From: Artocarpus heterophyllus
Taxonomy: Eukaryota > Streptophyta > Magnoliopsida > Rosales > Moraceae
Direction of reading: 5' to 3'
Length of the DNA stretch: 64,000 nucleotides
Assembly: GCA_025403435.1 (NCBI GenBank)
Contig: CM046351.1
Location: 524,573-588,572, forward strand
Shown: piece by piece, positions 2,964-26,879 of the stretch
How the letters are laid out: each line of letters starts with the position of its first letter
Numbering within the stretch: the stretch's first letter is position 1
The notes under the pieces: generated by a model
Database searches by the model: none
What the model was told of the DNA's origin: nothing
Seen by the model: the letters and a program-made list of their open reading frames with translations, nothing else
Position numbers and translations under genes: made by a program

Positions 2964-3985
2964 TTATGTTTCTGTAGATTGATTGGTTTTGGTTGCAGGC
3001 TGTTTGGCAACTATGTTTTTTGTGGCATCAAGGAAAAGATTAGGCAATGCTGAATCTTGATTAGGCGAATTAGGAATATTGGAGAAAAGGAAAATGGTTT
3101 CAAAAAATTTTACATCTTGGCTAACAAAAAACTTTTTAGCTTCCATGTCGTAAAGTTGTAACCTTTCTGACCAGTGGGGTACCCAACAAATATGCATTTC
3201 TTGGCACGGGATCAATTTTTTGAGTAGGATGGACCACAGTTGCATAATATAGGCATCCAAAAACTTTCAAGTGATCAAATGACGGTGGAAGATGATACAA
3301 CAACTCAAAAGGAGATTTATTTGACAACAATGGTGATGGAAGTCAATTGATAAGGTAGACAGCGGTTAAAACACAATCCCCTAAAAAATTAATTAGTAAG
3401 TGGGATTGAAAGAGTAACGCACGTGCCACATTGAGAATGTGGTGATGTTTTCTTTCCACTACTCCATTTTGTTATGGAGTGTAAACACAACTGCGTTGGT
3501 ATTCAATTCCATGATATCGAAAGAAATTTCTCATGGTTAGGAATTCTAAACCATTGTCTACTCTTATAGCCTTAACATGGGCATGGAATTGTGTATAAGC
3601 AAAATCAATAAATGTTTTTAGAATATTTTGTGTTTCAGACTTGTTTTGCATAAGAAATACCCATGTACATCTTGGAAAATCATCCACAATGGTGAGAAAA
3701 AAAACATGCCCCTGATTGTGTGGAAACTTTATGTGGACCCCAAATATCACAATGTAACAAATCAAATGGAGCATGAGTTGAAATTGAACTTAAAGGAAAT
3801 GGAAGTCTTGTTTGTTTAGCCACGGGACAAACAGTACAATTATTATCATGAGAAACTTTATTGAAAGATAACAATGGAGAAACCAGTTTTAGACAAGATG
3901 GTGATGGGTGTCCAAGACACATGTGCCATAGGTTTGGAGTGTGAGATACTTGATGAGAGATTGGTGTCCTTTTCAATGGAGACAT
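2964..3985 (-). pseudogene. Copia A integrase and GAG-pre-integrase region, broken
   Basis: Fragments in at least three frames. The right part (3985 down) reads NLWHMCLGHPS followed by a Cys pair, the GAG-pre-integrase HHCC-type zinc region, then PFDLLHCDIWGPHK, the start of the integrase catalytic core. The segment at 3472-3774 holds the core with DFPRCTWVFLMQNKSE and IRVDNGLEF. The segment at 3136-3330 holds SPFELLYHLPPSFDHLKVFG, the typical end of copia integrase. Frameshifts and stops between the pieces show it cannot make a full integrase. Confidence 0.85.
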
Positions 3986-3988
3986 GTA

Positions 3989-5479
3989 CTAAAGACCATC
4001 GCGCTGTTTACCCAAGCTAATCATCTTTCCCGTAGCCAAGTCTTGTAATACACAAAAAGTAGGAAAAAGGATGGCACAACAGTTTAATTCAGTGGTGAGT
4101 TTGCTAACAGACATCAAATTTAAATGAAAAGAGGGGACACATAAAACATTGTCTAGTGTTAATGATATAGTGCCTGTTGAAGCAATTGGTGCAGAAGACC
4201 CAGTGGGTAGGTTGACAATAGGTACTGTTGAAGGTTTTGATTGAGTGAAAAGTATAGGGACAGAAATGATGTGATCAGTAGCTCCACTATCCAAAGTCCA
4301 AGGTTTAGTGAATACAGAATTGATTGAAGCATTGGGAAAGGTAAACAGACCTACAGCATTTGCATAATTGTTGCTGTTACCAGAGGCAAGGTTTTGATTT
4401 ATCATGAATATGGCATGAGCAAGTTGCTGAAGTTGTTCTGAGGAAAGACCGTGCAATGATTTGGAGGAGTTATTATGGCTGGTCTGAGGTATGTTATGTG
4501 AATAATTTGCCAAATTAGAGAAATGAGTTGAAGTGTTGGTGTCTCACAAATATCCCTTTTGCGTTGGCTGTGAAGAATCCGCTGCATTGGCAACTAGGAA
4601 AAAATTAAGTTTATTTCCCTGAGAACCACGCTGTTGTTGTAGCTGATTGTGTCGATTGTTTTGGGTTCCTGTGTTGTTAAGAACCCAGGTCCCATTTTTA
4701 TACTTGCACCTATCCTTAGTATGGCCTTTTTTGTCACTAAACTTGCAATGAAATTTTATTGTACAACAATTTTCAATTGTATGACCTGCTCTATTACAAT
4801 GATCGCAATACTTATCTTTATTTAGAGGATTGTTTGCTCGGCCATGTACTGCAGCAACAATTGAAAAATTTTTGATTGGTTCTGATGTCATTTGTCGCTG
4901 TGTTTCTTCTTGAATGACAAGAGAGTAGGCTTGGCGTACGTTGGGCAGCGGCGTCATCATGAGGATATTGGTGCGAATGACGTTGTAGGCGTCATCGAGG
5001 CCCATGAGAAATTGCATCACCTGATCCTCTTCTCTCTGTTCAATGTGTGCTTTCATCTGGTTGCAAGTGGGAAGAGGTCTGTACGTCTCTTATTCATCCC
5101 AAAGGCCTTTGATTTTTGTGAAATATGATGAGACTGTCATGGTACCTTGTGAGGGAGATGCTAATGATTTCTGGATTTGATAGATTGCTAGTGCATTTTT
5201 TTGTGAGAACTGATCTTTGAAGTCATCCCAGACTTGTTAAGCCGTCTTTGCATGAATTACTCCTTTGGCTAGATCGGGCTCTACTGAGTGAGTTAGCCAT
5301 GACAAAATCATACTGTTGCATTGATTCCATAAAGTGTATTCTTCTGGTTGTTCAGTTTCTGAAGGTGGCTGTATTGATCCATTTATGAATCTAATTTTGT
5401 TTTTGGCTGTAAGGGCATCAATCATAGCTCTACTCCATAATGGATAATTGGCACCGTTCAATTTGGTTGAAACGAGCAT
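3989..5479 (-). pseudogene. Copia A gag and aspartic protease region, broken
   Basis: The right end (5479 down) reads LNGANYPLWSRAMIDALTAK, the N-terminal block of copia gag. The 4544-5056 segment holds the middle of gag and two Cys-rich blocks (CDHCNRAGHTIENC and a degenerate second one), the nucleocapsid zinc knuckle region. The 3989-4513 segment contains WTLDSGATDHI, the protease active-site block (D-S-G-A). Frame breaks at about 5090-5230 and 4540 separate the parts. Confidence 0.85.
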
Positions 5480-5668
5480 ATGTCCGGGTTGATCTAAATG
5501 ATGAACAAAGTGTGGGTTTGATGGGTCTACGTTAGGATTAGTATCGCTGGTATTTGAATGTTTGGAAAGGGGTTTTTTTTTATGATATTTGAATTTCGTT
5601 TGCCACGGTGTTTGCTGATATGCTTAGACAAAATAGTAGTCAGGCCCTAAAGAGTGGTTCCAACACCA

Positions 5669-8340: not shown

Positions 8341-9907
8341 TGTTGGAAAAATAGTACGCAGCGGAATTTAAAAATTTCCATCAGAGTATTTTCCAAAACA
8401 CAAGTTTGACATGCTATATGCATAAATTAACCAGATCTTACTAACCTTTGTGTGCCGAAGAACCTCCGCAATCTGTGAAGAGAAGTAACGTTCTAGAAGA
8501 GCCTCAACCAACTGGTCTTCTTTGCTATTCTCTATCCACGACCGGAGTGAGTGTGGGCTCACACGTACAGCTCTTCCACCGGTGACTCTCCTTCCAACCA
8601 ATCGAGATAACCCAAAGCTAGTGTTCATGATTTGTGAACAAAAGCTCTCAGGGAGTTTGTAGATTCTCAGCAGCAGAGTATCACTCTTAATCTCTCAATT
8701 GATCTGAGTAACTTGTGAGAATCACTCCCTATTTATAGAGATTGGTCATAGGGTCAGTTCTTATCAGAATAGGTCTCAAAATTTAGATCAGAATCAAATT
8801 CAGATCAATATCTGATAAGATCCACGTGGAAACGTGTAATCTTATTCTTCGCTGATCGGTAGGTCGAACCATCTGATCGGCAGGCCGAACTGTCGTATAA
8901 ATATCTTCGCGAATCTTTTATTTTTCACCCGAGATTCTATAGGATAAAGTCTCAGTTTTGATTCAAATAACCCAATAGAGAAGTTATTTGATTAAAACAA
9001 CTTTATCTAGATAATCTCTAAGAAAATAAATCAATTTCTAATAATTCTACAAGTTTATCTTGATCTAATTTATCCAAAAATTAAATCAACTGATAAATAG
9101 ACAAGAATTATCCGATCCTTACAATTCAACAAGTTTATCTTGAATTAATTTTATTACAAAATTAATTCAACCAATAAACAGACATGAATTATTTAATTCT
9201 TCCAAATTTTAACCAATCTAATAAATCCTACATAAGTCACTAATTATTGAAAAAGCACGCCGTATCGTTACAGGATGTTGTGAGCTAGCAAAGGGGACCA
9301 TATGGACCTATATAGTTCAAGCTCTCGATAATTATGAAACCCAATATCCCAGATATATATTTCATAATTATCAACTCTAACACTACTCCACTAAAAGCTT
9401 GGAGCTGTACTCTCGAACTACATAGAATTACGAAGCTCGTATAGCTAAGTTTCCATGACATATCATAGTGTATCGTATCCTCATATGATAATACATAATC
9501 GGCTTAAGGACAAGTTCATCTTACCTTCCTGATTATTTTTATCTTACGTTCTATTATTTCACCATTAGAAAATTTACTATCCAAAGATAGTATACCATTC
9601 GGTTACACCTATGTATCCAAATGGTTGAGCGCTTAAGTTTTTCAATTACAGGATAACGCATATAAGAGGATATCATTACTCCAAAAGAGGAGCTATGGAT
9701 TCCATATCTGTGAATAACAAGTCTACGCTATCAAGAGTCATGCCTCCAATGTACCGGCATGCATATCATTATTTAGATGTAGGTGTCACCCTTTGGTACA
9801 TCAAAGACATAAGTCAAGATAACAAGCCTACTATTCATCTCAGGATTAAGATACAATACAAATGATTGTCTAAAGTGAATCGATTTGCTGAGATAGAATT
9901 ATTAATC
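8341..9907 (-). repeat. Copia B 3' LTR, left part (continues at 18231-18649)
   Basis: First 1.57 kb (on the plus strand) of the copia B LTR, starting TGTTGGAAAAATAGTACG. It ends at the TAATC where the young LTR element inserted; the LTR resumes after the duplicated TAATC and runs to CTAACA at 18649. Without the insertion the LTR is about 1.98 kb. It shares blocks with the remnant at 7010, the solo LTR at 55086 and the LTR at 62156, so this LTR family is present at least four times in the window. Confidence 0.8.
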
Positions 9908-11873
9908 TGTAACGCCCCTATGTGGGGGTTAACAGTTTTTAATGAGATAAAATAAAAATAAATAATAAAAGTAAAACCTTAAAAATAAAATTTGCCCGGG
10001 ACTTAAATGAAAACTCTCAACTCAAAAATAAAAATATAAACGATAAATAAACCACAGTTTTAATGTAGCACCTTAAATTTAATAAAATAAACTGTTGTCA
10101 TCATCATTTTAACCCTCAACACATTGTAATACAGTCACAGAAAGTAACAATTGATGCTTACATTATCATGAAGAACATTCTCAACGATTGAAGCAGTCCC
10201 AATGTAATATAGTTACATCACTTCCTCAACTATATTTCTCGTAGCCACCTCACACTTAGTGAGTCCTGAAAAGATAAAAATATAAGGGAATGAGCAACAC
10301 TATGCTCAGTAGAGAAAGCCATTACTCACCTCTATCATTACCACATTAAAATCTGCATGGTTAGTAAGTCACATCATATTTCAGATTATGAGGTTTATTA
10401 TGATCACATCTTATGGATACCGTAGTTAATCATTACCAAGTGTCATAATTACACATTTATACAAATATTACCAATCATCATTGTTCCTAGGTATCCATGT
10501 TAAATTGAGTATCACTCAACTCATCGAAACCCAAATGGGCGCACTTGATCACCCTATAAACATTCCAAGGGTGTTCCGGTGAGGGGACATCAAGCCCCGA
10601 GTCCTCACCAAATCGATTCCTGTACAGTGTGTTCTGGGACTTTCAACCCAAGGAAGCGTCATCGCCTTCCCCCTACTTTACCTTTTAGGGTATTCATGCC
10701 CAAGGACGTAACCGTCGCCCTTTTCATGTCTCACAATTTCTCTATATTAAATCATTATTAATAGAGTTAATTTTCCTAACCATGCTTCTCAATTTATAAC
10801 ATGTGTCAATTCATTATGTTCCTCGCCGTACAATACAAGACGAGTCCATGTCATAGTTTCATATGTGATACACATATAATATCAGTTCAACATAGATATA
10901 TATATATTGCGGCAAAACAATCAATTTTAATTCTATAAAAACCTCACAAAAGATGAGTAATAGAATCCCTACCTTTTAAGCTTATCAACAGTCTCTTAAT
11001 CTTGGAATCAATTAACGTTAGCTCCATACTCCCTTGATCCTAAGGCGTGCATAAGGACAATTAAAACTAAAGCACAACATACAACTACATTCATAAAATT
11101 TATTTTAATTTAATCTTAGAATTTCAAGAAATAACCACTGCCCATAGAGGTATTATAAAGTTTAACAATATAAATTTTCTGTCTAGGGCATATACACTTA
11201 GACTTCATACATATGCTCCAAAATAGCAACAAACATATACTTAGGTTTAAGAACGTAAATTTGAATAATCCTTTAGTATAAAAGAAAATTTATAAATGAA
11301 AGACTAAATTTGTTCATAAGATTCTAACCTCAGATTATGGTTAGTTGGAAGCTTAAAATGGCTTCAAAACAGGTTCCTTTACTTCGGTATGACTGAAATT
11401 CTTGCTCAAATGGAGGTGATGGTGGCTGATTTTTATGGCTGCCTTGAAGAAGTTCTCTAAGTATTTTGCTTCAGCAAAGAAATGAGAAGAAGAGTGTGGG
11501 AACCGTGGAAGAGAAAGGAAGAAAAGATGAAGTCTTTGAAGAGAAGTGATAGAAACAATTATAGAGGAGACATGTTGAAGCATGTCACGGAGGAAATAAA
11601 GAAAATGAGGGTCAAGAGTAGTTGGAAAAGATATCCTTATGTCTCATCTAAAGACTTTAACACATATAATGCCAATATGACATTTTTGAGATTTATTAGA
11701 AGTTCTAAGGCTTTTTAGTAATCATACTAAATAAATATAAGAGAATTTTAGAAAATTTAAAAATAGATAAAAATAAATATTATAAAATAAATTTAAATGA
11801 AGCAATTTTTTTTTATACATTAAAAATTAATTTAATTACCTCAATACCCGTTAGGAGAATAACGGGTGTCACA
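9908..11873 (-). repeat. 3' LTR of the young element
   Basis: 1966 bp, matching 16260-18225 base for base as far as I compared, except G at 9994 against A at 16346. The small ORFs inside it, including those at 10579-10761 and 11482-11718, occur identically in both LTRs and are not taken as genes. Confidence 0.93.
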
Positions 11874-11930
11874 GCTCTACCCCCCTTAAAGAAATTTCGT
11901 CCTCGAAATTTCAATTCTAGTAATACTAGT
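11874..11930 (-). other. Polypurine tract and relic of the pol 3' end
   Basis: In element sense the sequence before the 3' LTR is ...TTTAAGGGGGGTAGAGC then TGTGACACCC. The CTTAAGGGGGG-type tract (11889-11880) is where plus-strand DNA synthesis would be primed. The preceding GAGGACGAAATTTC block is common just upstream of the polypurine tract in plant chromoviruses, so a few dozen bases of the parent element's 3' end appear to be kept. Confidence 0.7.
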
Positions 11931-12824
11931 AAAAATTATGATTCCACTATGATTCCAATTCTGAGTCTAAACCGTTAATGTTGTTTGTCCTCCAAATTTA
12001 AGTTATCGTATTTCCACTTATTTACTTGCATAATAAATCTTACTCCTAAATCCCTCAATAAGAGTATTTCTGACAAGTTTCAACTTATAACACCGTATAA
12101 TAGTCTAAGAATCTGATCAGGCATACATATTGACCATACCATGATTCCAGTCCTTCATTGTCCATGGACTGTGATTTACAATCACATTTAAGGAGATTGC
12201 CAGAGAAATTTTATATACTTCATCTTTAGGTTCCTTTTCCTTTTTGAGTAAGGAAAAGTCAAATATATTTGATTTCATACCTCAACTAATAAACTAAAAC
12301 ATAATCATAAAACATATATCACAAACACTTTTATTCAAAACTATACATTAAACTTATTCATAGAGATATTAAACGGAATCTCAGAGTTGCAAACATACCC
12401 GACATATTTTTCATTAAACAGCTATTCTCATGACACAAACATTCAATCCAAATAATATACTCATATTTCATATGGAATATCCCCATAACTGACTCTGGTA
12501 CTTCCACATAATATTAACAGAATATTACACATTACAAACATAATACGGATACGTTTCGAGAGTACAAGGCACTCCGTATACCAGCTATCCATATCATGCA
12601 TGCTTAGAGGATACAAAAACATCGATAAACAAAAGATCGGACCTTAAGAAGGATGCGTTTCGATCAAGTACTCCGTATCCAGCCATCCCGGCATTAGGCT
12701 CAATGAATATAAAAGATTTAACAACGACGTACCACAAAAAAACACAGAATACAAGGCAAACGGTTATTCGTAACACACGAAATACGGACACACATGCCTA
12801 CATGCCAAAGATAAAACAAAAAGA
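11931..12824. other. Non-coding 3' interior of the young element
   Basis: AT-rich stretch between the LOG-like stop codon and the polypurine tract. Short ORFs only, no recognisable pol domain. A roughly 60-bp stretch near 12545-12690 repeats a TACGGAGT-type phrase (12551-12582 and 12655-12677), a small internal duplication. It is probably the 3' untranslated part of the element transcript. Confidence 0.5.
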
Positions 12825-13514
12825 TTACAGATGGAGATTCAAATCAATTGGCCGCTCCCGGCTTTCCCTTTCCCATTCAAGCTTGGATGTTGCAGTGTCG
12901 GATTCTGGATGTATGATTTGCATTTTATCTATCAATTCCTCAGCTGTTGAAGCAGTGACAAAGATTTGTCTCTCCGATTCTGTAGTGATGTTTTCTTCCA
13001 CAGCGTAATCTAGAAATTTCAAAAGACCGTCATAAAAACCCTTTACGTTCAGCAGTCCCAAAGGTTTGGAATAAAAGCCCAACAATTGCCCACAAGCAAC
13101 TATAAATATTTCCTCAAGAGTACCTAGACCACCAGGTAATGCTATAAAAGCATCAGAATTATCGATTATGTCTTTAAAATTTTTAGGGATACTCCTGACT
13201 CCTTCTCCCTTACCTATGGCTTCCTTACAAAGGTTTCCTTCAACTGGAATATGAGGCCAAATTCTTACATCAGTAGCGTCGCTAGACCTAGCTGCTAGTG
13301 CCATATTTACCATCATTTTTATACTACCACCCCCATAGATTATGTTAATCTTCTTGCGTGCTAGGACTTGCCCTAAGTGATTTGCAGCTTCTAAATAAGC
13401 TTTATCTTTTCCAAGGCTGGAACCACAAAAGACACAGACATTCTTTATTTTCTTCGTGGACTGGGAGGTAGACATATTTGGTTTATAGAAGTGGTTGCTT
13501 AATGTCTGCTCCAC
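12825..13514 (-). CDS. LOG-like (cytokinin riboside 5'-monophosphate phosphoribohydrolase family) protein captured by an LTR element
   Basis: Single uninterrupted 229-residue ORF in the sense direction of the young LTR element. The fold signature of the LOG/lysine-decarboxylase-like family is clear: KNVCVFCGSSLGKDKAY (25-40), INIIYGGGS (56-64), FIALPGGLGTLEE (123-135, the PGGxGTxxE phosphate-binding motif), KPLGLLNVKGFYDGLL (150-165). Known LOG enzymes release active cytokinin bases from their nucleotides in the cytosol. This copy is diverged: GLMG after GGGS is replaced by KMMV, the ERK-type basic block before the PGG motif is replaced by NFKD, and the segment after GGGS is hard to align. 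These are substrate-site regions, so normal activity is doubtful. Plant LOG genes have several introns; none is present here, pointing to capture through an RNA copy. The C-terminus ends DLNLHL, an LxLxL pattern of the EAR repressor type. Family membership is sure; activity is inference. Confidence 0.8.
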   Translation of the reverse strand: MEQTLSNHFYKPNMSTSQSTKKIKNVCVFCGSSLGKDKAYLEAANHLGQVLARKKINIIYGGGSIKMMVNMALAARSSDATDVRIWPHIPVEGNLCKEAIGKGEGVRSIPKNFKDIIDNSDAFIALPGGLGTLEEIFIVACGQLLGFYSKPLGLLNVKGFYDGLLKFLDYAVEENITTESERQIFVTASTAEELIDKMQIIHPESDTATSKLEWERESRERPIDLNLHL

Positions 13515-14118
13515 TTAGACTTCGGGTTCTACATGAGATTTTAAAGATGAGAAATATACAAAAAGGGCTAAAGAGATAGACGAGTAGGTAATGAAAAGGT
13601 AATCCAAAGATTTAAACAAAATCTTGTGCGGATAAGAAAGTAAGATAAGGTGATTGATAGTTTACAGAAAATCTGATTCACTTTTTGAAAAAGATTAGAC
13701 TCTAATTGTATAACTTTTGACAATTGAGAACAATTCGACAAAAGACCCTCTTGACACAACTGTAGACTTTTTGACAAATATACACCAAGTCTAGAAATTT
13801 AATATAAACGACAAATACTGTAGAACTTTTGAAATTTGAGACACAAATCTTGAAATATCTGGATAAGCTTTTCAAAATTCAAACATATTACTGTACCGTA
13901 TGTAACGTGTCTGATAAGATAATATATTTTATTATATATATATTTAAGAAAATCATAAATTAAATAAGATATTAACACTTACTGTATCAATCTAATAATC
14001 ACAATTATTTCAAACACAAAAGCAAATATTCTGAGTAAAAGAAAAACACAAACTGTTGAACATCAGCTAAAACTGCTTCAAACAAGCAAAGACTAAATAA
14101 CCTTTATAGAGCGATGAC
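13515..14118. other. Spacer between the two ORFs of the young element
   Basis: About 600 bp, AT-rich, with one 69-residue minus ORF (13568-13777) lacking recognisable features. If one transcript covers both ORFs, the LOG-like ORF would be second and would need a spliced or internal transcript to be translated well. Confidence 0.4.
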
Positions 14119-14640
14119 TTATTCCCCATCCAGTTTTCTTATGGCTTGACAAACAGGATCTAGAAATACCATATTCTTGAGGCGTTGTCTTTCTGTATAA
14201 AATTTAGGCCAGAGTTTAAAAATAGCTCCTTGAACATATCCACTAGGGTGACCGTGGAGAGGAGGATGGATGCTATCCAAGTTCTCCTTTGAAAGTCCAT
14301 CCCTACAAAACCTTATTTTATCCTCTCTATTCGTAGACATATAACCAGGTGAAGTACATTTACCGTTACAATTTTGTCTTCCACATTTGTTACAAGTGAC
14401 CACGATGGCACGAGCTCTTCTTTTCATTGCACTACGACTGGTACCCGTTCCTGGTAAACCGACATCTTGACTAAAGTCACTCGGACGGATTTTCCCCTCT
14501 ATTAACATTCTCACATCACAAGGGATACCAAAACGCATAAGAATCCACAACCGAGTAATTCTAGCCTTGTATTTCTTTCTGAGAATCTTTTGGGAGAGTG
14601 ATGGGAAATACTTTCTCAGGTGTTGGTACCTTGGGTCCAT
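14119..14640 (-). CDS. Zinc-cluster protein resembling viral cysteine-rich nucleic-acid-binding proteins (carla/viti/allexivirus NABP type)
   Basis: 173-residue basic ORF, first ORF of the young LTR element in its sense direction. Residues 66-79 (GTSRSAMKRRARAI) form an Arg-rich patch directly followed by a C-x2-C-x4-C-x3-C cluster (C83, C86, C91, C95), then PGYMS and an IRF-type block. The order of a Gly/Ser lead-in, KRRARA patch, zinc cluster and PG-x-S is the layout known for the betaflexivirid cysteine-rich nucleic-acid-binding proteins, some of which suppress RNA silencing. The segment RLWILMRFGIPCDVRMLI (30-47) also resembles the short hydrophobic lead segment of the carlavirus proteins. 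The C-terminal 60 residues are extra and unrecognised. It is not the usual retroviral CCHC knuckle (C-x2-C-x4-H-x4-C). An unrelated plant zinc protein remains possible; similarity is judged by eye. Confidence 0.5.
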   Translation of the reverse strand: MDPRYQHLRKYFPSLSQKILRKKYKARITRLWILMRFGIPCDVRMLIEGKIRPSDFSQDVGLPGTGTSRSAMKRRARAIVVTCNKCGRQNCNGKCTSPGYMSTNREDKIRFCRDGLSKENLDSIHPPLHGHPSGYVQGAIFKLWPKFYTERQRLKNMVFLDPVCQAIRKLDGE

Positions 14641-16239
14641 GATGAGATGAAAGAAGAGTAAATAGAAAGGAAAAATTAAGATAGTAAATTGCAGAATCCT
14701 AGAATTCCTTCTTCTTTTAGAGGAAAAGAAGAATTTTTAATGAAAAAGAAGAGGATTTGCGATTTAAAGAGAAAATAACAAATTAAGAGAGAAAAAGTGA
14801 ACTCGGAGAAATAAGCTCCTATGCACAGTAAACGTATATGTAAACAATGATTAAACCACTGTATATGACACGTATAGAGACCACGTGGGAGAGACAGTGT
14901 GAATCAAACTGATTTAAGATTTGAACTAGGCCCAAATGTTCTTAGTTGAAAATGGTCAGGTTGTTTCGGGCCTTAACACATTTAGAACGAGTTAAATAAC
15001 AAACATAAAATTGAAAACCAATTCGTATGAATCTTAAACCCAATTCAAAGCCCACTATAGATAAAGTTAATTATGAACAACAAATCTAATTTAACGACAA
15101 CAAGGATCTTCCTGAATGATATTTAAAATCATTTCATAACAACATAATCTTCCAGCAACTCGAATAATTTTGTTTTAATCAAAACCTTATTGAACAATAC
15201 ATACACCCATATGTTATTCATAATACTTAACATCTATCAATGGATTCATCATCATTGCTACCAAGGGTTTAGAATGCGACTAACCTTGAAATCAATACGA
15301 TTTACGTCTTCCAACGTAAACCATATCAATGAACAAAGACACTTGATGTTACTACTTAAGAACATCTACAATCCCCACAATTCTACTTATACAATATATA
15401 ATTTCCTCATATAACAAAACCGTAGGTAACCAAAAGATTCACATCTAAACATCTAAAACTTAAACATTTTATTGTAATTATCCAAAATTATTATAAGTGC
15501 CTTAAGTATTATGATTTACTTAAGGAAACTCCTATTGATCATTTTTCTATTGCATCTATATATAAAGATTCACTGATACACTTAAATACAATGTACGTAA
15601 CAAAATATTTCAATTTTGAGATTCATGCATTCTAGACTTTACACAGTCTCAACAGACCAAAAGTCTAACATTTATCTCTCTCAAGATTCAATACCATGAT
15701 TCCCAACTTATATCATATTCCTCAAATAAATAGAACTTTTAAGAAAAGATATTGACACTTATGTGCTCCATCGAATCCACACATAATCATTACTTAGGTT
15801 TGAATCAATTACGAAAAATTTGGCATATCTATGTCAAACTTTAAAATCAATAAATCAAGCCTTATATTTCTTATTGTTTTTCACGAGACAAAAGGCTCTT
15901 AAATCATCGTATCTATACGAATTTCTCATCGTTTATACGAATTAAATATGCTTATAGATCCAAATATTATACGAATCTCTCATAAGCATTCTACTTATAA
16001 ACTCATTCCATATAATTATCATTCCCTCATAACTATTAATACTTTCCTTCAATATAATTATTGTACTCATATAACTATTAATATTTTCATTCTATGGCCT
16101 TTCCATGTTACATCCTTCTAGACTGTATAAATCAATGTGAAGGTTCACTTTGATGATGACAATGAAAATTCAGCTTCAAAACCATCTCAAAAATATATTT
16201 TTTAAAGTGGTGCTACACTCCCTAGGTTAACCGAACCTA
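14641..16239. other. Long non-coding leader of the young element
   Basis: 1.6 kb between the primer site and the first ORF. No gag or protease motif is visible in any frame; the only ORF of note (15190-15414, plus strand) is antisense and featureless. It would be the 5' leader, including any packaging signal. Confidence 0.5.
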
Positions 16240-16252
16240 GGCTCTGATACCA
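16240..16252 (-). other. Primer binding site of the young element (Met-tRNA type)
   Basis: In element sense TGGTATCAGAGCC, complementary to the 3' end of plant initiator Met-tRNA, seven bases inside the 5' LTR. It fixes the element's orientation as minus. Confidence 0.92.
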
Positions 16253-16259
16253 AAAATTC

Positions 16260-18225
16260 TGTAACGCCCCTATGTGGGGGTTAACAGTTTTTAATGAGAT
16301 AAAATAAAAATAAATAATAAAAGTAAAACCTTAAAAATAAAATTTACCCGGGACTTAAATGAAAACTCTCAACTCAAAAATAAAAATATAAACGATAAAT
16401 AAACCACAGTTTTAATGTAGCACCTTAAATTTAATAAAATAAACTGTTGTCATCATCATTTTAACCCTCAACACATTGTAATACAGTCACAGAAAGTAAC
16501 AATTGATGCTTACATTATCATGAAGAACATTCTCAACGATTGAAGCAGTCCCAATGTAATATAGTTACATCACTTCCTCAACTATATTTCTCGTAGCCAC
16601 CTCACACTTAGTGAGTCCTGAAAAGATAAAAATATAAGGGAATGAGCAACACTATGCTCAGTAGAGAAAGCCATTACTCACCTCTATCATTACCACATTA
16701 AAATCTGCATGGTTAGTAAGTCACATCATATTTCAGATTATGAGGTTTATTATGATCACATCTTATGGATACCGTAGTTAATCATTACCAAGTGTCATAA
16801 TTACACATTTATACAAATATTACCAATCATCATTGTTCCTAGGTATCCATGTTAAATTGAGTATCACTCAACTCATCGAAACCCAAATGGGCGCACTTGA
16901 TCACCCTATAAACATTCCAAGGGTGTTCCGGTGAGGGGACATCAAGCCCCGAGTCCTCACCAAATCGATTCCTGTACAGTGTGTTCTGGGACTTTCAACC
17001 CAAGGAAGCGTCATCGCCTTCCCCCTACTTTACCTTTTAGGGTATTCATGCCCAAGGACGTAACCGTCGCCCTTTTCATGTCTCACAATTTCTCTATATT
17101 AAATCATTATTAATAGAGTTAATTTTCCTAACCATGCTTCTCAATTTATAACATGTGTCAATTCATTATGTTCCTCGCCGTACAATACAAGACGAGTCCA
17201 TGTCATAGTTTCATATGTGATACACATATAATATCAGTTCAACATAGATATATATATATTGCGGCAAAACAATCAATTTTAATTCTATAAAAACCTCACA
17301 AAAGATGAGTAATAGAATCCCTACCTTTTAAGCTTATCAACAGTCTCTTAATCTTGGAATCAATTAACGTTAGCTCCATACTCCCTTGATCCTAAGGCGT
17401 GCATAAGGACAATTAAAACTAAAGCACAACATACAACTACATTCATAAAATTTATTTTAATTTAATCTTAGAATTTCAAGAAATAACCACTGCCCATAGA
17501 GGTATTATAAAGTTTAACAATATAAATTTTCTGTCTAGGGCATATACACTTAGACTTCATACATATGCTCCAAAATAGCAACAAACATATACTTAGGTTT
17601 AAGAACGTAAATTTGAATAATCCTTTAGTATAAAAGAAAATTTATAAATGAAAGACTAAATTTGTTCATAAGATTCTAACCTCAGATTATGGTTAGTTGG
17701 AAGCTTAAAATGGCTTCAAAACAGGTTCCTTTACTTCGGTATGACTGAAATTCTTGCTCAAATGGAGGTGATGGTGGCTGATTTTTATGGCTGCCTTGAA
17801 GAAGTTCTCTAAGTATTTTGCTTCAGCAAAGAAATGAGAAGAAGAGTGTGGGAACCGTGGAAGAGAAAGGAAGAAAAGATGAAGTCTTTGAAGAGAAGTG
17901 ATAGAAACAATTATAGAGGAGACATGTTGAAGCATGTCACGGAGGAAATAAAGAAAATGAGGGTCAAGAGTAGTTGGAAAAGATATCCTTATGTCTCATC
18001 TAAAGACTTTAACACATATAATGCCAATATGACATTTTTGAGATTTATTAGAAGTTCTAAGGCTTTTTAGTAATCATACTAAATAAATATAAGAGAATTT
18101 TAGAAAATTTAAAAATAGATAAAAATAAATATTATAAAATAAATTTAAATGAAGCAATTTTTTTTTATACATTAAAAATTAATTTAATTACCTCAATACC
18201 CGTTAGGAGAATAACGGGTGTCACA
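16260..18225 (-). repeat. 5' LTR of the young element
   Basis: 1966 bp, TGTGACACCC...GGGCGTTACA in element sense. Its outer edge is followed by the TAATC duplication at 18226-18230. As 5' LTR it should hold the promoter that drives the two captured ORFs. Confidence 0.93.
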
Positions 18226-18230
18226 TAATC

Positions 18231-18649
18231 CAAATCAATTTATTTTATGTTCCGATCCAACACATCGTCACCTATGACAACGTACTAATGTTTCTATTCA
18301 CGGAGTCAACCTCCGATGGTCAAGACAAACCATCTCCCAAAAGGGATATAGACAACATAACAATCTTTGCATGAATAAAGCGCCCAACTTTATTCCCTCG
18401 ATTGCGGATCTTATGTTTTAGACCATCACCTTAAGAATCGTGTCTTCCGCATAATCTGTCCATCATATGCCCAATTCTTAAGATTTAGACCGACAGTCTC
18501 AGACTATTATTTGCTTATCATACATTCAACAAATATAAACGTAAAGAGGGCAAGATTTGGTATATATAATAATGAATAAATTCTTTATTGATAAAAATGT
18601 CACTAAAAACTTATTACATTTTTACTCCTTAGGGCATACATGTCTAACA
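18231..18649 (-). repeat. Copia B 3' LTR, right part
   Basis: Resumes the LTR interrupted at 9907. Ends ...CATGTCTAACA; in element sense the LTR therefore starts TGTTAGACATG. The polypurine tract lies just inside at about 18650-18662 (element sense GCAAGCGGGAGAT). Related tails occur at 23490-23813 and 62900-63184. Confidence 0.82.
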
Positions 18650-18663: not shown

Positions 18664-20438
18664 CTAAGTGAGTAAATACAACAAATTTCGCATCCCAATA
18701 GCTTCCACATGTTTTTCGAAGACTCTTCCAGTAAGTGTCTTCGTAAATGGATCAACTAAATTGTCCTCTGACACGATCTTGCACACCGTGACATGCCCGC
18801 CTTCTACGAAGTCCTTTATCACATAATACTTTCGATCAATATGCTTACTTTTCTTGTGAAATCTTGGTTCCTTAGCATTGGCTACCGCCGCACTGTTATC
18901 ACAGTATAGTGATACCGCCTTATCCATACTAGGAACTACCTCAAGATCCCCAAGGAACTTGCGGAGCCACACTGCTTCTTTCGAAGCATCACTAGCTGCC
19001 ACATACTCGGCTTCTATCCTTGAATCCGAAGTGCAATCTTGCTTTGCACTTCTCCAACTGATGGCACCGCCGCCCAAAGTAAACACAAAACCTAAAGTCG
19101 ATTTCCTAGAATCCAAACAGGATTGAAAATCCGCGTCAGTGTATCCTAGAGAAGTCAAGTCCTCACCCGAATACACAAGCATATACTCTCGAGTCCTTCT
19201 CAGGTACTTGAAAATATGCTTTACCGTAACCTAGTGGTTCGGTCTTGGATCCATCTGAAATCGACTTACAATCCCGACCACATAACTAATATCCGGTCAT
19301 GTGCAAAGCATGGCATACATGAGACTACCCACTGTCGAAGCATAAGGCACCTTCTTCATGTATTCTCTTTCTTCATAAGACTTTGGAGAGTCTTTCTTAG
19401 AAAGAGTAATTCCAGACCTAGATAGTCGCCCACCTTTCTTGGAATCCTGCATTGCAAATCTCTTGAGAATTTTATCTATGTAGCCGGCCTGTGATAAAGC
19501 TATCATTTTGTTCTTCTTATCCCGAAAGATCTAGATACCGAGAACAAAATTAGCCTCATTTAAGTCCTTCATGTCAAACTACTTGGTCAACCATAATTTG
19601 ACCGATGACAACGCCCCAACGTCATTGCCAATTAATAGAATGTCATGTACATAGAGTAGTAGAAAAACCACCTTCTCATCCTTTATGTATTTGTAAACAT
19701 GGTTCATCCACATTTTGTGAGAACCTATAAGTCTTGATCGCTTGATCAAATCTTATGTTCCAAGGATGAGAAGCCTGCTTAAGTCCATAAATTGACTTTA
19801 GCAACTTACAAACCTTCCCCTCTTGAACCGTGACCTTGAACCCGTCTAGTTGTTCCATATAAATGAACTCATCAAGATAGCCATTCAGAAAAGTAGTATT
19901 AACATCCATATGCCAAATCTCGTAGTCAAGAGCGGCAGCTATGGACAAGAGAATCTGGATAGACTTAAGCATGGCTACAAGCAAAAAGGTTTCCTCATAA
20001 TCAATTCCTTCCTTTTGCATATAACCCTTAGCTACCAGTCTAGCCTTAAAGGTTTCAATCTTTCCATCCACTCCTCTTTTCCTCTTCTAGAGCCACAGGC
20101 CTTAAAGGTTTTAGCCCTTTGGGAAGATCCACAAGCTCCCAAACCTGATTAGTCTCCATAGACTTCATCTCAACGTTCATGGCCTCTGTCCAGAGTTTTG
20201 AATCAACATCCTCCATAGCTTCTGCGTAAGTATAAGGATCCCTATCATGTTCATCCGGTTCAGCCAAAAAGACCTCCCCATTGAACATATACCTATCCGG
20301 TTGACGTTTGATCCTCCCACTACGCCGAAGCCCCTGAGGCTGTTGTTCAGGTTTGTTTGGTTTTTCTACATTGATCGGAATGGTTTCATTTGGAGCCTCT
20401 GGAGTGTTCGGATCACTCCTTAACTCCTCAAGCATCAC
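18664..20438 (-). pseudogene. Copia B reverse transcriptase and RNase H, broken
   Basis: The 18664-19182 frame is a good copia RNase H: LGYTDADFQSCLDSRKST, then SRIEAEYVAASDASKEAVWL, LYCDNSAAVANAKEP and KHIDRKYYVIKD, with the D-E-D catalytic pattern kept. The RT lies in three further frames: 20055-20438 (linker, TEAMNVEMKSMETNQVWELV), 19676-20071 (ARLVAKGYMQKEGIDYEETF and WHMDVNTTFLNGYLDE) and 19297-19506 (the end of RT). The active-site block near 19640 (VHDILLIGND-like) is outside the open frames. Stops and shifts rule out a working polyprotein. Confidence 0.87.
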
Positions 20439-20444
20439 TTTGCT

Positions 20445-20942
20445 TCAAGGTTTAAAGCCGTCCATATAACTCTCCTCAAGGAAAGTTGCATTAGTTGAAA
20501 CCACTACTTTATTTTCCTTTGGGTTATAGAAATAACCCCCTTTTGTCCCTTTTGGATATCCTACAAACATGCAAACTTCCAAACGTGCTTCTAACTTATT
20601 CGGATCCTTAAACAAGACATGAGCCGGACATCCCCATATGCGAATATGGTTTAAGGATGTCTTTCTACCTGTCCACAACTCATGAGGAGTTTTAGGGACT
20701 GATTTTGAAGGCACATTGTTTACAAGATAACATGCGGTTTGTAGCGCATATCCCCAAAAGGATAAAGGTAATGATGAATAACTCATCATGGACCTGATCA
20801 TGTCCAACAAGGTCCTATTTCTTCTCTCTGCTACACCATTCTGCTGCGGAGTGCCCGGCGCAGTCAAATGGGATAAAATCCCATTCTCTAATAGGTGTCT
20901 CAAGAACTCATCAGAAAGGTATTCACACCTCGATCGGATCAA
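20445..20942 (-). pseudogene. Copia B integrase, partial
   Basis: 165 residues from the integrase core end onward: [20 protein letters not shown] (catalytic Glu block), [28 protein letters not shown] and [16 protein letters not shown] text, in the standard copia order. The part between 20943 and 21097 that should join it to GAG-pre-integrase carries stops. Confidence 0.87.
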
Positions 20943-21097
20943 AGTGTCTTTATGGGTCTACCCAATTGCTTTTTCACTTCAGCCGGAAACTCCTTGAACT
21001 TATCAAAAGTTTTGCTTTTATGGTGCATTAGGTATACATACCTATATCTTGAGTAATCGTCAATAAAAGTGACGAAGTACTCATACCCTCATCGTGC

Positions 21098-22145
21098 CTA
21101 GATGTTCATTGATCCGTAAACATCACTATGCACAAGTTCTAGAACCCCTTTGGCTCTATTGCCCTTTGACCCGAATGGTCTTTTGATCATTTTACCCTCC
21201 AAACAAGATTCACACTGAGGTATAGATTCCACCTTTAAGTGACTTAAAGGTCCATCCCTTACCAACCTTTGAATCCTATTTAGGTTAATATGACCAAGGT
21301 GCAAATGCCAAAGATAAGTCTTATTAGAGTGAGAAGTTTTAAGTCTTTTAGAGTTATTATCATTCATCTTAGCATTAAGCAATAAGTCCATCTTAGGTTT
21401 GATAAAATATAGATTATTTTGCATCCATCTAGAACAGATAAAAGATTTGTTTTTACGAATCATCACTTTTTCGTTAAAAGAAACTATAATGGAGTCTTTA
21501 AATAAACAAGATACATAAATTAAATTCCTTTTAAATTTAGGAACATAAAAACAATCTTGCAAAAATAAATTCCTATAATTATCAAAATAAAGATAGACGT
21601 CTCTCACTGCTTCCGCTGAGACTAAGGATCCATCGCCCATCCTAAGCGTGAAGTCCTCATGTAGCAAACTTCTCATTTCTTTGAACCCCTGCAGAGAAAC
21701 ACAAACATGGTTAGTTGCACCAGAATCTATGACCCAAATGTCACTGGATTCTTCAACCAAACAAGTTTCTAAATATAAAAGATCACACCTACCTCCTTTG
21801 GAAAGGAAGTCCTTGCAATGCTTCTTGATACGCCTAACCTTCCCACAAAAGAAGCACTTAAGCTTCTTTGGGTTCTTCTTCTTCTTGCTCTTAGTAGTAG
21901 CAGGAATAAAAGACTTCTTGTTTTTGGCCCATTGTTTCTTTCCATTCCCAGAGTTAGGATTGGAACCAGAGATAGCTACCAACTTGGCCTCACCACCCAG
22001 AGGAGACTCCCTAATTAGCAGTTCGAACTCCTATAACTGTTTCATTAATTCCGTCAAGGTCATATCCCGTCTATTGCTTAAATTAAATGTAGCTCTAAAC
22101 GGAATAAATTCCTTAGACAGAGTTTCAAAGACCATAGTTATCTGA
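21098..22145 (-). pseudogene. Copia B gag (C-terminal part), protease and GAG-pre-integrase
   Basis: Reading down from about 22200: a gag block (VIGYLVEA, then FETLSKEFIPFRATFNLS), an in-frame stop near 22033, then a zinc-knuckle remnant CFFCGKVRRIKKHC, the protease block WVIDSGATNHVC and the pre-integrase block LWHLHLGHINLNRIQRLVRDG with CESCLEGKM. The N-terminal half of gag is missing upstream of about 22200. Confidence 0.82.
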
Positions 22146-22930: not shown

Positions 22931-23813
22931 CTTCATGTATTTTCCAATTTCAAGTCTTCAATCCCGTATGAATCGAATACTTCATATTTCTGATCATATC
23001 TAAATTTAATGTTTCTCAGAATTGTCCCAAAAATAAAATTAAAACTACACCTGAAAAACTGTGCCTTTTCTAAAAACTTTTTCAGCTCTCGGTCGGCAGG
23101 CCGATCTGGGTGATCTGCATGTCGGTCATGTTTCATCGGCCTACCGATCAAAAAGATCAGCCTGTCGACCCATGAAAGTTTGGCTTGCCGAACTAGAAGT
23201 TCGGCCTACCGGCAGAGCTAGCTGATTTATGTTCCATTAACGGCCACCGAGCCATACATCCAGCCTGCCATTCTGTGACCATCGGTCTACCGAATTGGTA
23301 GGTTTGGCATGCTGACAGAGTAGAAATCACCCATTTTAGAAAATACAATTTTTAATGCAATTCATCAATTTTATTTTCAACAAATCATCGAAAATAGATG
23401 ACGATGTATTGTATCAGGACATAAAATGTAATTGATTTGAATTAATAATTCTATCTTGATAAATTAATTCACTTTAAACAAATTAATTCATAGAGTCCAT
23501 TTTCGATGGCCAAGACAAACCATCTCCTGTTAAGAATATAAACAACATAACAATCTTTGCATGAATAAAGCGCCAAACTTTATTCTCTCGATTGTAAATC
23601 TTATGATTTAGATCGTCACTTTTAGAATCATGTCTTTCGCATAATCTGTCATCATATGCATAATTTTAAAGGTTTAGATTGACAGCCTCAGACTTTTGTT
23701 TGCTTGTTATACATTCAACAAATATAAACGTAAAGAGAGGACAAAAATAATAAATAAATTCTTTGTCAATAAAAATGTCACAAAAAACATATTATATTTT
23801 TAAATGTCTAATA
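22931..23813. repeat. Copia B 5' LTR remnant, internally rearranged
   Basis: The right part (about 23490-23813) matches the LTR tail at 18300-18649 in the same orientation and ends TCTAATA, a mutated CTAACA. The part at about 23398-23485 matches the same LTR in the opposite orientation (it is the reverse complement of sequence flanking the 9907/18231 junction). To the left (23088-23300) is a cluster of CGGCCTACCGATC-type motifs like those at 8146-8215 and 8868-8893. The LTR has suffered an inversion or fold-back joining. Confidence 0.65.
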
Positions 23814-24301
23814 CAAATTTCTTTTGATTTGTTCAACACAACATGAGCTGCTCTGTTATTTTTATTTTTTGCTCAGAAACGTGTGCTTCTTAATAACATC
23901 AACGAGACAAAAGGATTTGGAAGTTACATTGAGACATAACGTTGGTTGCTGTGTCAAAAGTTTTTTATTTTTTTATTTTTATTTTTTAAGTAAGGAAAAA
24001 GGAAAACAAAATACGTTAAAGAACAAAAAAAAAAAAAGAAAAGAAAAAAGAAGAGACTTCAAAGTTACAAAACAAATACAAAATTTGAATAAGTAATTAA
24101 AAAGATTTTGATTTGAAGGGTAGAAATGAAAAGTAAACATATATATTTATTTAGCAAAATGGTGTTTTAAGTATGGGGTTGATATAAAAAGAAATGGGAA
24201 GTAAATCCCTTTTTTGAAGAGAATAATGTTGTTGTCCTTTTATATCCGTGTTGGGTGGGGATATATACAGGTAAGATGAGTGGGATAAATTCTAATCAAC
24301 A
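23814..24301 (+). promoter_or_regulatory. Upstream region of the SDR gene with TATA box
   Basis: AT-rich, with an A-rich tract at 24025-24060. A TATA-like GATATATACA at about 24258-24267 lies roughly 40 bp before the ATG at 24302, which would imply a very short leader. An alternative TATA (TATATATTTA near 24138) is further up. Copia B ends only about 490 bp upstream of the start codon. Confidence 0.45.
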
Positions 24302-24957
24302 ATGGCTGATGTTGGTGTTAAGATGGAGGGGGATCAGAGTCAGAGTCTGAGTCTGAGAGAGCGAGTGGCGATTGTGACGGGAGGGTCTCGCGGGATTGGA
24401 AGAGGAATCGCGCTTCACTTGGCCTCTCTCGGTGCTAGAGTCGTTGTCAATTACACCTCCCCTGACTCCACCCAAGCCGATCTCCTCGTTAACCACATTA
24501 ACCAACAATATTCATCTTCATTTCCCAACACCAACCAAATCCAAATCCAAATCCAAATCCCACGCGCCGTCGCCCTCCGAGCCGACATCTCCGATCCGGC
24601 CCAACTCAAGTCCCTCTTCGACAAGGCCGAAGAGATCTTCGGTGGGCCACCCCACATCCTCGTCAACTCTGCCGGTGTTGTTGATCCCAAATACCCTTCC
24701 ATTGCTAACACTTCCCTCGATGATTTCGATCGCGTTTTCAGGTAGTTTTATTTTCTTATAGTTATATAGCCAGTCTCCTTGCTCTGAAAAGTGATACTTT
24801 TGTCCTCCTTGCTTTTAATTTTAAGGAAACGTTTCTTAAACTCTTAAATTTTGGCAATTCAAGAACCTTGACATAAACTCTCATTTACTCCTCGACATGA
24901 CTTGATTCCAAGAGGCATGATAATAAAATCATATATTTTTTAATATTTTTATAACAA

Positions 24958-24989
<32 letters not shown>

Positions 24990-26879
24990 GCAAAATTAAA
25001 TGAAATAAATAAAAAGCTCTCATATCCCTGAAAAAATGAAAAAAGTTCATCAATCTTAATTTGTTAATACTCTCATATTGAAAAGAAAAAAATAAAAACA
25101 CGATTGCACTTTCAATATCCCCACCTTTGATTCACAAGACTTGTGTGTTTGGTTAATCAAAACAAAACAAAAAGGGAAAAAAAAAAGGGTCTGTAGAGAG
25201 CTTGATGGCAGTAATGGGTTGGCCATTGGTGTTGCTCGCGATTGATTTGATTTCGCGATGGGGTTGAGCTCGTGCAAGGAAGGGATGGCTCGCAGCTTGG
25301 AGGTGGTCTCACGGAAGGCTAGGTGTGACAGAGCTTCGTTGGTTTGGTTCTGGGATCGAAGGGAGCTCGAACATGCAGATACTGTCATTCTCCCAAATGT
25401 TTGCCCTTCTTAGTGTTCGTTTGAATTTATTCATAGAAGTTTGGTTTTTGATTCTGTTGGTAGTTTATTTGATCATGGGTTTTATGGATCAGTGTACCAA
25501 ATTGAGGCTTCACTAATTAAGCTGTTGTTGGTTCTCAAATTTTTTTTCTTTTTTCTTTTTTATTTTTTTGATATGAAATTGGTAGTTAGATTCTTCATTT
25601 GAAGAAATTGCAGCCCCTTTGAAGTTTTTTATTTTATTTTATTTTATTTTATTTTTTTGTTTTCACTGATAACTGATTACAAATGAACTCCCAAATCTAA
25701 AAATAGGTTGAAAAGAAAAGGGGAAATAAAATGAAAGGGACGTTTAGGTAATTTTGTTTTAAATAACGGACACCCAATGCACGCATGATTAGATCCATTA
25801 GGTTTTGGTTAGATTTTGACGGAAGGTCTTCAAATTGTACAGGTTGATGAGTCTAAGGATTATTTTACCAAAATTTAAAAAAAGGGGGATTAAAGTGTCG
25901 CCTATCAAAGAGTTAAGAACCACCAATACAAATTATTCTAATTTAATTTAAAAGTATATTTTAATTTTTTTTTTTAATTTATCAGTCCATTAAATATTCA
26001 ATAACCAATGCTACCCTCTCTTCCTCTATCTTTTTTGTTTATTTAATTTAGAAATTGTTTCTTTTTTGTTTTCAAAAATCAAACCCCCTCTCTCTGTTCG
26101 TTTTTGCATGAATAAATATAGTATTGGTTAAACTCTTGAGATTTATTGGTACACAAATCCAAAGTCAACTCTTTGATTTCTTGACTCGTGCACGCACTTG
26201 ATAAGATAAAAATAAATTCATGATTTTAAGGAATCGGAATGGAACTCTTAATTTTTGGTTGAACCGCATAAAAATCCGCTTTTCTCGATTTGATTATTTG
26301 TCTTATCACCCCCTGTTTCTTACTTCTTTGGTTCTTTGATTAGATTGCGTGTTCATTACTTGTTCAATTAGCAAATTCTCTTTGAATAGAGAATATATCA
26401 AGTAATGTTAGACTTATCTTTGCTTATCATTATTTATTTATTTATTTATTTATTTCCTCTCTTTGTCTAGTGTGAATGCCAAAGGGGCGTTCTTGTGCTG
26501 TAGAGAGGCAGCAAACAGGTTGAAGCGTGGCGGTGGGGGCCGCATCATAATGTTGTCGTCGTCACAGGTGGGTGCATTGAGCCCAGGATTTGGTCCTTAC
26601 GCTGCGTCAAAGGCGGCTGTGGAGGCGATGGTGAAGATACTTGCAAAGGAGCTGAAGGGGACGAGGATCACCGCTAACTGTGTGGCGCCAGGCCCCATTG
26701 CGACAGACATGTTCTTTTCAGGTAAGAGCGAGGATGATGTGAAGAAGGTGGTGGAGCAGTGTCCCCTGGGACGCCTTGGTGAGGTTGAGGACGTGGCCCC
26801 TTTGGTGGGATTCTTGGCTTCTGATGCCAGTGAATGGGTTAATGGCCAGGTCATTCGCGCTAATGGGGGATATGTTTAG
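24302..26879 (+). CDS. Short-chain dehydrogenase/reductase, NADPH-dependent aldehyde reductase-like (2 exons)
   Basis: Exon 1 24302-24741 and exon 2 26471-26879 (stop TAG), joined across a 1729-bp GT-AG intron in phase 2 to give 282 residues; the junction restores DDFDRVFSVNAKGAF. It is a classical SDR: cofactor motif TGGSRGIG (26-33), NSAG (122-125, usually NNAG), Ser in MLSSS (176-178) and YAASK (190-194) as catalytic Ser-Tyr-Lys, and the PGPIATDM block after the active site. The order and the C-terminal NGQVIRANGGYV match plant NADPH-dependent aldehyde reductase-like proteins, which reduce reactive aldehydes; several relatives are called chloroplastic, but no clear transit peptide is visible here. 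Residues 79-87 (QIQIQIQIP) come from a CAAATC hexamer expansion in exon 1. The start was chosen for a short N-terminus directly before the Rossmann strand. Exact substrate is unknown. Confidence 0.9.

What the first reader, a model, noticed from the sequence alone, without database searches (positions are those of the whole stretch)
9908..18225. Young LTR retrotransposon carrying a captured LOG gene and a viral-NABP-like ORF instead of gag-pol
Seen directly: two 1966-bp LTRs, perfect TAATC duplication, Met-tRNA primer site and polypurine tract in one orientation, and no pol domain in the 4.4-kb interior, which instead has two sense ORFs. Known: LTR elements can transduce host gene RNA (maize Bs1 is the classic case), and non-autonomous elements move with enzymes supplied in trans. 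Inference: the element co-packaged a cytokinin-pathway gene and a nucleic-acid-binding protein and spreads both under its LTR promoter. Pairing a LOG homologue with a virus-like RNA-binding protein in one plant element is, to my knowledge, not described.
Basis: partly seen in the sequence, partly recalled or inferred. Interest (0 to 1): 0.93.

Follow-up and report, generated by a model that had tools for sequence, protein, structure and literature searches.

The report
Gag-pol-less retrotransposon with two accessory genes
A recently inserted plant LTR retrotransposon has no recognisable copying genes of its own and carries instead two genes whose relatives are found in many plant genomes, one derived from a plant hormone-activating enzyme and ending in a predicted repressor-recruiting tail, the other resembling a zinc-finger protein of plant RNA viruses, so it likely moves with borrowed enzymes while its two proteins would act on the host cell.

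Summary
The structure is confirmed. It is a minus-strand LTR element with two 1966-bp LTRs (1 difference), TAATC duplications, a tRNA-Met-type primer site, a polypurine tract, no recognisable gag-pol domain and two intact ORFs. "Freshly captured, unique pair" is not right. LOG-like domains in Gypsy elements of Citrus and poplar are published (PMC9289625), and both ORFs belong to large protein families whose named hosts are plants.

New here:
(1) ORF-L belongs to one clade of LOG-derived proteins, most of which end in a basic stretch plus LxLxL, the EAR repressor consensus: 87 of 89 clade members of at least 214 aa, 0 of 5 canonical LOGs. The window copy lost the canonical LOG arginine but kept the tail.
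(2) ORF-N belongs to a conserved ~182-aa family that scores against carlavirus nucleic-acid-binding Pfam models. A chance plant-like contig shows it directly behind a Ty3/gypsy integrase.

Best reading: a non-autonomous element, probably mobilised in trans, that kept accessory genes. ORF-L would recruit corepressors rather than make cytokinin; ORF-N would bind nucleic acid. Neither function is tested. Other copies in the window's own genome could not be searched: the tool was unreachable in 16 tries.

The parts
9903..9907 (.). target-site duplication TAATC, left copy
9908..11873 (-). 3' LTR (element reads on the minus strand), 1966 bp, TG...CA ends
11880..11887 (-). polypurine tract AAGGGGGG next to the 3' LTR; TTCGAGGACGAA lies just upstream at 11896
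12825..13475 (-). ORF-L, 216 aa LOG-derived protein (Lysine_decarbox; TIGR00730 by way of P0015)
12828..12848 (-). codons of the C-terminal IDLNLHL, LxLxL tail matching the EAR consensus
   Evidence: consensus from the PMC9956375 abstract as listed
14119..14640 (-). ORF-N, 173 aa zinc-finger nucleic-acid-binding-like protein (Carla_C4 / Viral_NABP family resemblance)
14356..14394 (-). codons of the C-x2-C-x4-C-x3-C motif of ORF-N (C83-C95), preceded by KRRAR
16240..16252 (-). primer binding site TGGTATCAGAGCC, 7 bases inside the 5' LTR
   Evidence: tRNA-Met identity recalled
16260..18225 (-). 5' LTR, 1966 bp, one substitution from the other
18226..18230 (.). target-site duplication TAATC, right copy

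Best explanation
This is a young LTR retrotransposon that lacks recognisable gag-pol and keeps two intact accessory genes, so it is likely mobilised in trans by an autonomous relative, while its LOG-derived protein is predicted to recruit host corepressors through a C-terminal LxLxL tail and its zinc-finger protein would bind nucleic acid much as carlavirus cysteine-rich proteins do. Shown: element anatomy, intact ORFs, membership of two large families whose named hosts are plants, a single clade with the tail, ORF-N behind a gypsy integrase in another contig. Inferred: mobilisation in trans, descent from an accessory cassette of fuller elements, nuclear action of both proteins, corepressor binding by ORF-L, and loss of LOG enzyme activity in this copy. 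Expected payoff: expression or persistence of the element (and of its helper) against host silencing, or in dividing cells.
For: Anatomy and age: 1 difference in 1966 bp, about 20-36 thousand years at recalled rates of 1.3e-8 and 7e-9. The nearest relative of ORF-L, P0015, differs by one residue (8 members, 12 contigs); P0001 is 96% identical to ORF-N over 80% of it (8 members). Tail: of the 120 hits listed, 11 were dropped (5 canonical LOGs, 3 Xanthoceras double models, 3 rows outside the clade), leaving 109; 89 are 214 aa or longer, and 87 of these 89 end in LxLxL, 86 of 89 with 3 or more K/R just before it; 0 of 5 canonical LOGs have it. LxLxL elsewhere in the listed proteins of 214 aa or longer: 5 of 19,882 nine-residue windows. 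Rows with the tail form one side of a branch with 100/99 support against the canonical ones. Catalytic positions: the arginine is R in 100 of 109, Asn in the window's protein; the second Glu of TLEE is E in 107 of 109 and kept in the window's; the Lys next to the arginine is lost in 108 of 109. ORF-N: 856 hits at E<=10, the 120 listed all below 1e-75; 84 of 91 aligned members match Carla_C4 at E<=0.1; four-Cys motif in 107 of 125 proteins. L018: Ty3/gypsy integrase (rve 2.4e-16, H2C2 1.4e-12), then ORF-N on the same strand 204 bp later. Constraint: window against L018, 172 codons, dN 0.44-0.47, dS 1.4-4.0 (saturated; YN00 failed); identity by codon position 58/69/44%. In the 25-row alignment A3 the window's ORF-L (as P0015) keeps 54 of 75 conserved positions but 23 of 76 variable ones; ORF-N keeps 58 of 72 and 11 of 50.
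Against: No second copy of the element was seen: the own-genome search did not complete (16 tries) and no other copy is in the window. L018 carries ORF-N but no ORF-L. The window's ORF-L lost 21 of 75 conserved positions, more than four other members tested (2 to 11 lost), and has a very long branch (1.17), which could mean relaxed constraint. 14 of 109 clade members lack LxLxL in the last nine residues: 2 of the 89 longer ones and 12 of the 20 shorter ones, two of these 213 aa long; the three Xanthoceras LOG-like models also lack it. The EAR tail is a short motif and its binding is untested. ORF-N's cysteine spacing (x2-x4-x3) differs from the carlavirus x2-x12-x4. The ORF-N model is weak (mean pLDDT 70, pTM 0.35) and no Foldseek hit is significant (best E 0.61). 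With 42 upstream ATGs, translation from the full LTR transcript is doubtful.
Confidence: 0.55

Rival explanations
1. One-off transduction (Bs1-like): a single element recently captured a host LOG transcript and a virus-derived gene, and this is essentially the only copy.
For: No other copy is in the window and no second genomic copy could be looked up.
Against: P0015 and P0001 show near-identical sequences in other records; the two families are large and diverged; the LOG domain is published in Citrus and Populus Gypsy elements; ORF-N sits behind gypsy pol in L018.
Confidence: 0.1
2. The ORFs are passengers: non-functional leftovers of a deleted autonomous element that persist only because the insertion is young.
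For: ORF-L lost 21 of 75 clade-conserved positions, including the LOG arginine, on a long branch; many upstream ATGs.
Against: Both frames are open at about 50% divergence from relatives; third codon positions diverge most in ORF-N; conserved positions are kept preferentially and the three tail leucines survive.
Confidence: 0.25
3. ORF-L is an active cytokinin-releasing enzyme that raises cytokinin in the cells where the element is expressed and so favours dividing, germline-forming tissue.
For: Fold family, PGG-GTLEE motif and the catalytic glutamate are kept.
Against: The arginine of the canonical motif is Asn in the window, the GGGSxGLMG stretch is altered, and the loss of the neighbouring Lys in 108 of 109 members argues for a changed site. 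It stays open for relatives that keep the arginine (100 of 109).
Confidence: 0.1
4. ORF-N is a nucleocapsid substitute: it binds and packages the element's own RNA in place of Gag.
For: Basic stretch plus four-Cys motif; it is the 5'-most of the two ORFs of the element.
Against: In L018 it sits after integrase, in the accessory slot of an element that has its own pol; Pfam shows no Gag domain in it.
Confidence: 0.12

Closest known systems
YgdH (LONELY GUY-type) domain in Ty3/gypsy elements of Citrus and Populus (PMC9289625, citing Steinbauerova 2011)
   Same: LOG-type domain inside plant LTR retrotransposons, Populus included
   Different: Those consensuses were picked by their reverse transcriptase; the window element has no recognisable pol. 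In the parts of PMC9289625 that I read (find passages and section 12), no repressor tail and no partner ORF is mentioned.
Accessory ORFs between pol and the 3' LTR of plant LTR elements (env-like, TRP28 of Retand; PMC7264820 passages and section 4, PMC11963269 passages)
   Same: Extra ORF in the slot behind pol (ORF-N in L018), recurrent across species
   Different: ORF-N shows a viral NABP-like zinc finger; env-like proteins and TRP28 are other families. In the window gag-pol is absent.
Cysteine-rich / nucleic-acid-binding proteins of carlaviruses (Pfam Carla_C4, Viral_NABP)
   Same: Basic stretch directly followed by a four-Cys motif; Pfam scores from below to above cut-off; 4 of 8 weak BFVD hits are such proteins (their virus family is recalled)
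   Different: Cys spacing x2-x4-x3 instead of x2-x12-x4; conserved stretches of about 80 residues on both sides of the motif within the family.
EAR-motif pathogen effectors (HaRxL21, PopP2; titles and starts of abstracts seen)
   Same: A foreign protein carrying an EAR motif in the plant cell
   Different: Encoded by a retrotransposon; built on a LOG scaffold; binding untested.
Non-autonomous LTR elements without gag-pol (LARD/TRIM type; recalled)
   Same: Intact LTRs, PBS and PPT without gag-pol
   Different: They are usually described as non-coding (recalled); this one keeps two ORFs of constrained families.
Bdelloid LTR elements sharing ORF3 types between retroelement classes (PMC5408684, abstract read)
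   Same: Accessory ORFs moving between retroelement lineages
   Different: Other hosts and other ORF types.

Membership tests
LTR retrotransposon | paired TG...CA LTRs, 5-bp TSD, PBS, PPT | tested here: met
Autonomous Ty3/gypsy or Ty1/copia element | gag-pol coding domains | tested here: not met
   none in the two ORFs and the 38 other open segments of 40 aa or more; shorter segments not scanned
Chromovirus-like (or copia) replication lineage | tRNA-Met primer site; PMC6317226 says non-chromoviruses do not use tRNA-Met | tested here: inconclusive
   PBS found but no pol domain is present to place the lineage
LOG cytokinin phosphoribohydrolase (ORF-L) | family profile | tested here: met
   PF03641 79.5 bits against cut-off 27; P0015 (one residue different) TIGR00730 130.4 against 96.35; the NF058542 cut-off of 300 is not reached, nor by canonical P0119
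LOG cytokinin phosphoribohydrolase (ORF-L) | catalytic Arg and Glu (roles and numbering R98/E121 recalled) | tested here: not met
   Arg is Asn in the window's protein; Glu kept
EAR-motif repressor (ORF-L) | LxLxL or DLNx(x)P consensus (PMC9956375 abstract start) | tested here: met
   LNLHL at the C-terminus; 87 of 89 clade members of 214 aa or more, 95 of all 109
EAR-motif repressor (ORF-L) | binds TOPLESS-type corepressors and represses | not testable with these tools
   needs binding and reporter assays
Carlavirus-type NABP (ORF-N) | Pfam gathering score of Carla_C4 or Viral_NABP | tested here: not met
   window ORF-N below both; 6 of 10 relatives pass at least one
Carlavirus-type NABP (ORF-N) | basic stretch followed by C-x2-C-x12-C-x4-C | tested here: not met
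   basic stretch yes, spacing x2-x4-x3 (carlavirus motif in a PMC8839810 passage on one virus)
Accessory ORF of an LTR element (ORF-N) | lies between pol and the 3' LTR in other elements | tested here: inconclusive
   L018: integrase then ORF-N on the same strand; its 3' LTR was not seen

The most novel reading that the evidence does not exclude
Plant LTR retrotransposons have evolved an effector pair: a LOG scaffold turned into a nuclear TOPLESS-recruiting protein by a basic-plus-EAR tail, and a carlavirus-CRP-like zinc-finger protein. Stripped-down elements such as this one keep only these effectors and parasitise helpers for everything else, reshaping host transcription or silencing as pathogen effectors do.
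Probability: 0.3. Interest if true: 0.88.

Novelty: new variant of a known kind. Interest (0 to 1): 0.66.

Why it matters
Accessory genes of plant retrotransposons are common, but the papers I read parts of (PMC7264820, PMC11963269, PMC11728184) describe their functions as mostly unknown. A clade-wide C-terminal EAR consensus is a concrete, cheap-to-test prediction (corepressor binding) for what a retrotransposon protein does to its host. A non-autonomous element that dropped gag-pol but kept its accessory genes would suggest that those genes pay off by themselves, much as effectors do. ORF-N links a plant element gene to a protein type so far named after RNA viruses, which raises the question which way the gene travelled.

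Tried and rejected
Own-genome copy search: the genome search 'own' did not complete, so copy number, target sites and dN/dS between copies are open. Viral contig scans with the ORF-N alignments found no relative; with the LOG clade they gave 17 loci with partial, weak matches, L001-L017, which I did not examine further. The genome-contig scan gave one locus, L018, filed under a bacterial MAG; I take it for plant contamination because of its gypsy integrase and 32% GC (inference). The first ORF-N model (15 sequences) was poor; the second (91 of the 126 rows at hand) was modest, with no significant fold match in BFVD or PDB. No solved structure matches ORF-N significantly by sequence (best E 0.61). 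The antisense 154-aa frame over ORF-L has only sub-cut-off Pfam hits and is read as chance overlap. An Athila-like origin of the L018 pol is recalled resemblance; no chromodomain was seen at E<=10, no tree was made. The TTCGAGGACGAA next to the PPT looks Tekay-like from memory only. NCBIfam gave ORF-N two weak hits far below their cut-offs (best 19.2 of 430 bits), taken as chance.
Full report
Observation. The element is real and young. Its LTRs lie at 9908-11873 and 16260-18225, 1966 bp each, with one substitution and no gap; TAATC flanks it on both sides. It reads on the minus strand: a tRNA-Met-type primer site (identity recalled) 7 bases inside the 5' LTR, and AAGGGGGG next to the 3' LTR. 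None of the 38 other open segments of 40 aa or more in the interior has a retroelement domain; shorter ones were not scanned. Two frames are far longer than chance: 205 and 229 stop-free codons against at most 173 in 500 Markov interiors. At recalled substitution rates the insertion is about 20-36 thousand years old. PMC6317226 (passages) reports that tRNA-Met primers are used by all copia lineages with complete-tRNA primers and by most chromoviruses and not by non-chromoviruses; this points to a chromovirus-like or copia-like replication system, but no pol domain is present to confirm it.

ORF-L. The 216-aa protein is LOG-derived (PF03641; TIGR00730 for P0015). The search scored 8000 candidates, found 7761 hits and listed the best 120. 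One cluster, P0015, is the same protein with one change. Most of the others are about 217 aa long; where a host is named it is a plant, and 11 of the clusters are loci on 9 Reevesia pubescens chromosomes. In a tree of 117 hits plus one Arabidopsis and one bacterial LOG (three Xanthoceras double models dropped), the 97 rows labelled as tailed by a slightly looser pattern form one side of a 100/99 branch against the 7 canonical rows; of 15 unlabelled rows 12 fall inside that clade and 3 outside. In one search I dropped 11 of 120 hits (5 canonical Solanaceae LOGs, 3 Xanthoceras models, 3 rows outside the clade), leaving 109. Of these, 89 reach 214 aa, and 87 of the 89 end in LxLxL, usually after a basic stretch (86 of 89); the two exceptions have Phe or Ile for one Leu. 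Of the 20 shorter ones 8 have the motif and 12 lack it, two of the latter being 213 aa long. In a 25-row alignment the residues between the leucines vary while the leucines are kept in 90% or more. Elsewhere in the listed proteins of 214 aa or longer the motif occurs in 5 of 19,882 nine-residue windows. LxLxL is the EAR repression consensus (PMC9956375, start of abstract). The canonical LOG arginine is kept in 100 of 109 members but is Asn in the window's protein; the glutamate is kept in 107 of 109 and in the window's; the Lys after the arginine is lost in 108 of 109. The window copy also lost more conserved positions (21 of 75) than four other members tested. It thus looks like a damaged enzyme with an intact tail. 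That is the main reason to favour a non-enzymatic, tail-mediated role, which remains a prediction.

ORF-N. A single-sequence search gave 14 relatives, 13 of them precomputed as Carla_C4; the profile search gave 856 at E<=10 (the weak end may hold chance hits), of which the best 120, all below 1e-75, were listed, with named hosts Hibiscus cannabinus, Xanthoceras sorbifolium, Populus x canadensis, Populus alba, Acer yangbiense, Rhamnella rubrinervis and Orobanche minor. The family is mostly 182 aa and conserved well beyond the zinc motif. 107 of 125 proteins have the four-Cys motif (106 with C-x2-C-x4-C) and 100 of 125 the basic stretch. For carlavirus CRPs a passage in PMC8839810 gives the same order of parts but C-x2-C-x12-C-x4-C. 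84 of 91 members match Carla_C4 and 83 Viral_NABP at E<=0.1; the window copy itself is below both cut-offs. Foldseek against viral models gave 8 hits, none significant, 4 of them NABP or silencing-suppressor entries of viruses that I recall as Betaflexiviridae; this is not independent of sequence.

Context from another contig. L018, 3330 bp in a bacterial MAG record, encodes a Ty3/gypsy-type integrase (rve, H2C2) and then, 204 bp further and on the same strand, ORF-N, identical to P0137. No ORF-L relative is on it. So ORF-N also sits behind pol in an element with its own integrase; the 3' LTR was not seen. No chromodomain was seen, so that element may be of another lineage than the window's tRNA-Met-primed one; if so, the gene moves between lineages (inference; the PMC5408684 abstract describes such sharing in rotifers). 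Between window and L018, dN is 0.44-0.47 and dS 1.4-4.0, saturated, by two methods (a third failed); codon-position identities are 58, 69 and 44% against 26-30% in shuffles, which indicates purifying selection.

Known or new. LOG-type domains in Gypsy elements are published for Citrus and Populus (PMC9289625 section 12). In the listings of my searches I saw no paper on an EAR tail of retrotransposon proteins, on Carla_C4-like genes in retrotransposons, or on the pair; the library holds only open-licence PMC papers. Linkage of the two ORFs outside the window rests on one shared contig length and is weak.

Verdict. Observation confirmed; interpretation partly right. The most useful result is the repressor-type tail, an immediately testable prediction for a retrotransposon-carried gene family.

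Noticed in passing
18296-18624 and 23486-23802: LTR-like repeats (82%) flank copia pol remnants at 18664-22030 (-); the element sits just beside this older copia. A further related stretch is at 62867-63441.
   Followed up: partly
1926-5623 (-): Broken copia-type polyprotein in several frames (by eye from translations).
   Followed up: no
40250-41007 and 49504-50251; 42441-46010 (+): Gypsy-type pol fragments (RVT_1, rve by Pfam in two of three segments scanned) between 87% identical LTR-like repeats.
   Followed up: partly
57076-60844: Array of diverged repeats, about 70-82% between units.
   Followed up: no
34167-34516 and 34564-34916: Direct repeat of about 350 bp, 94% identical.
   Followed up: no
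24296-26879 (+) and 36411-38828 (-): Probable host genes by eye from translations: a short-chain dehydrogenase/reductase and a beta-1,3-glucanase.
   Followed up: no
L018 1-3330: A contig filed under a Candidatus Nomurabacteria MAG carries plant-type gypsy integrase and ORF-N: probably plant contamination of the MAG.
   Followed up: partly
P0043, P0082, P0084: LOG-like proteins (212 aa) that keep MHERK and end in KRRRLD, as if the tail were cut just before the LxLxL; they branch next to the canonical LOGs.
   Followed up: no
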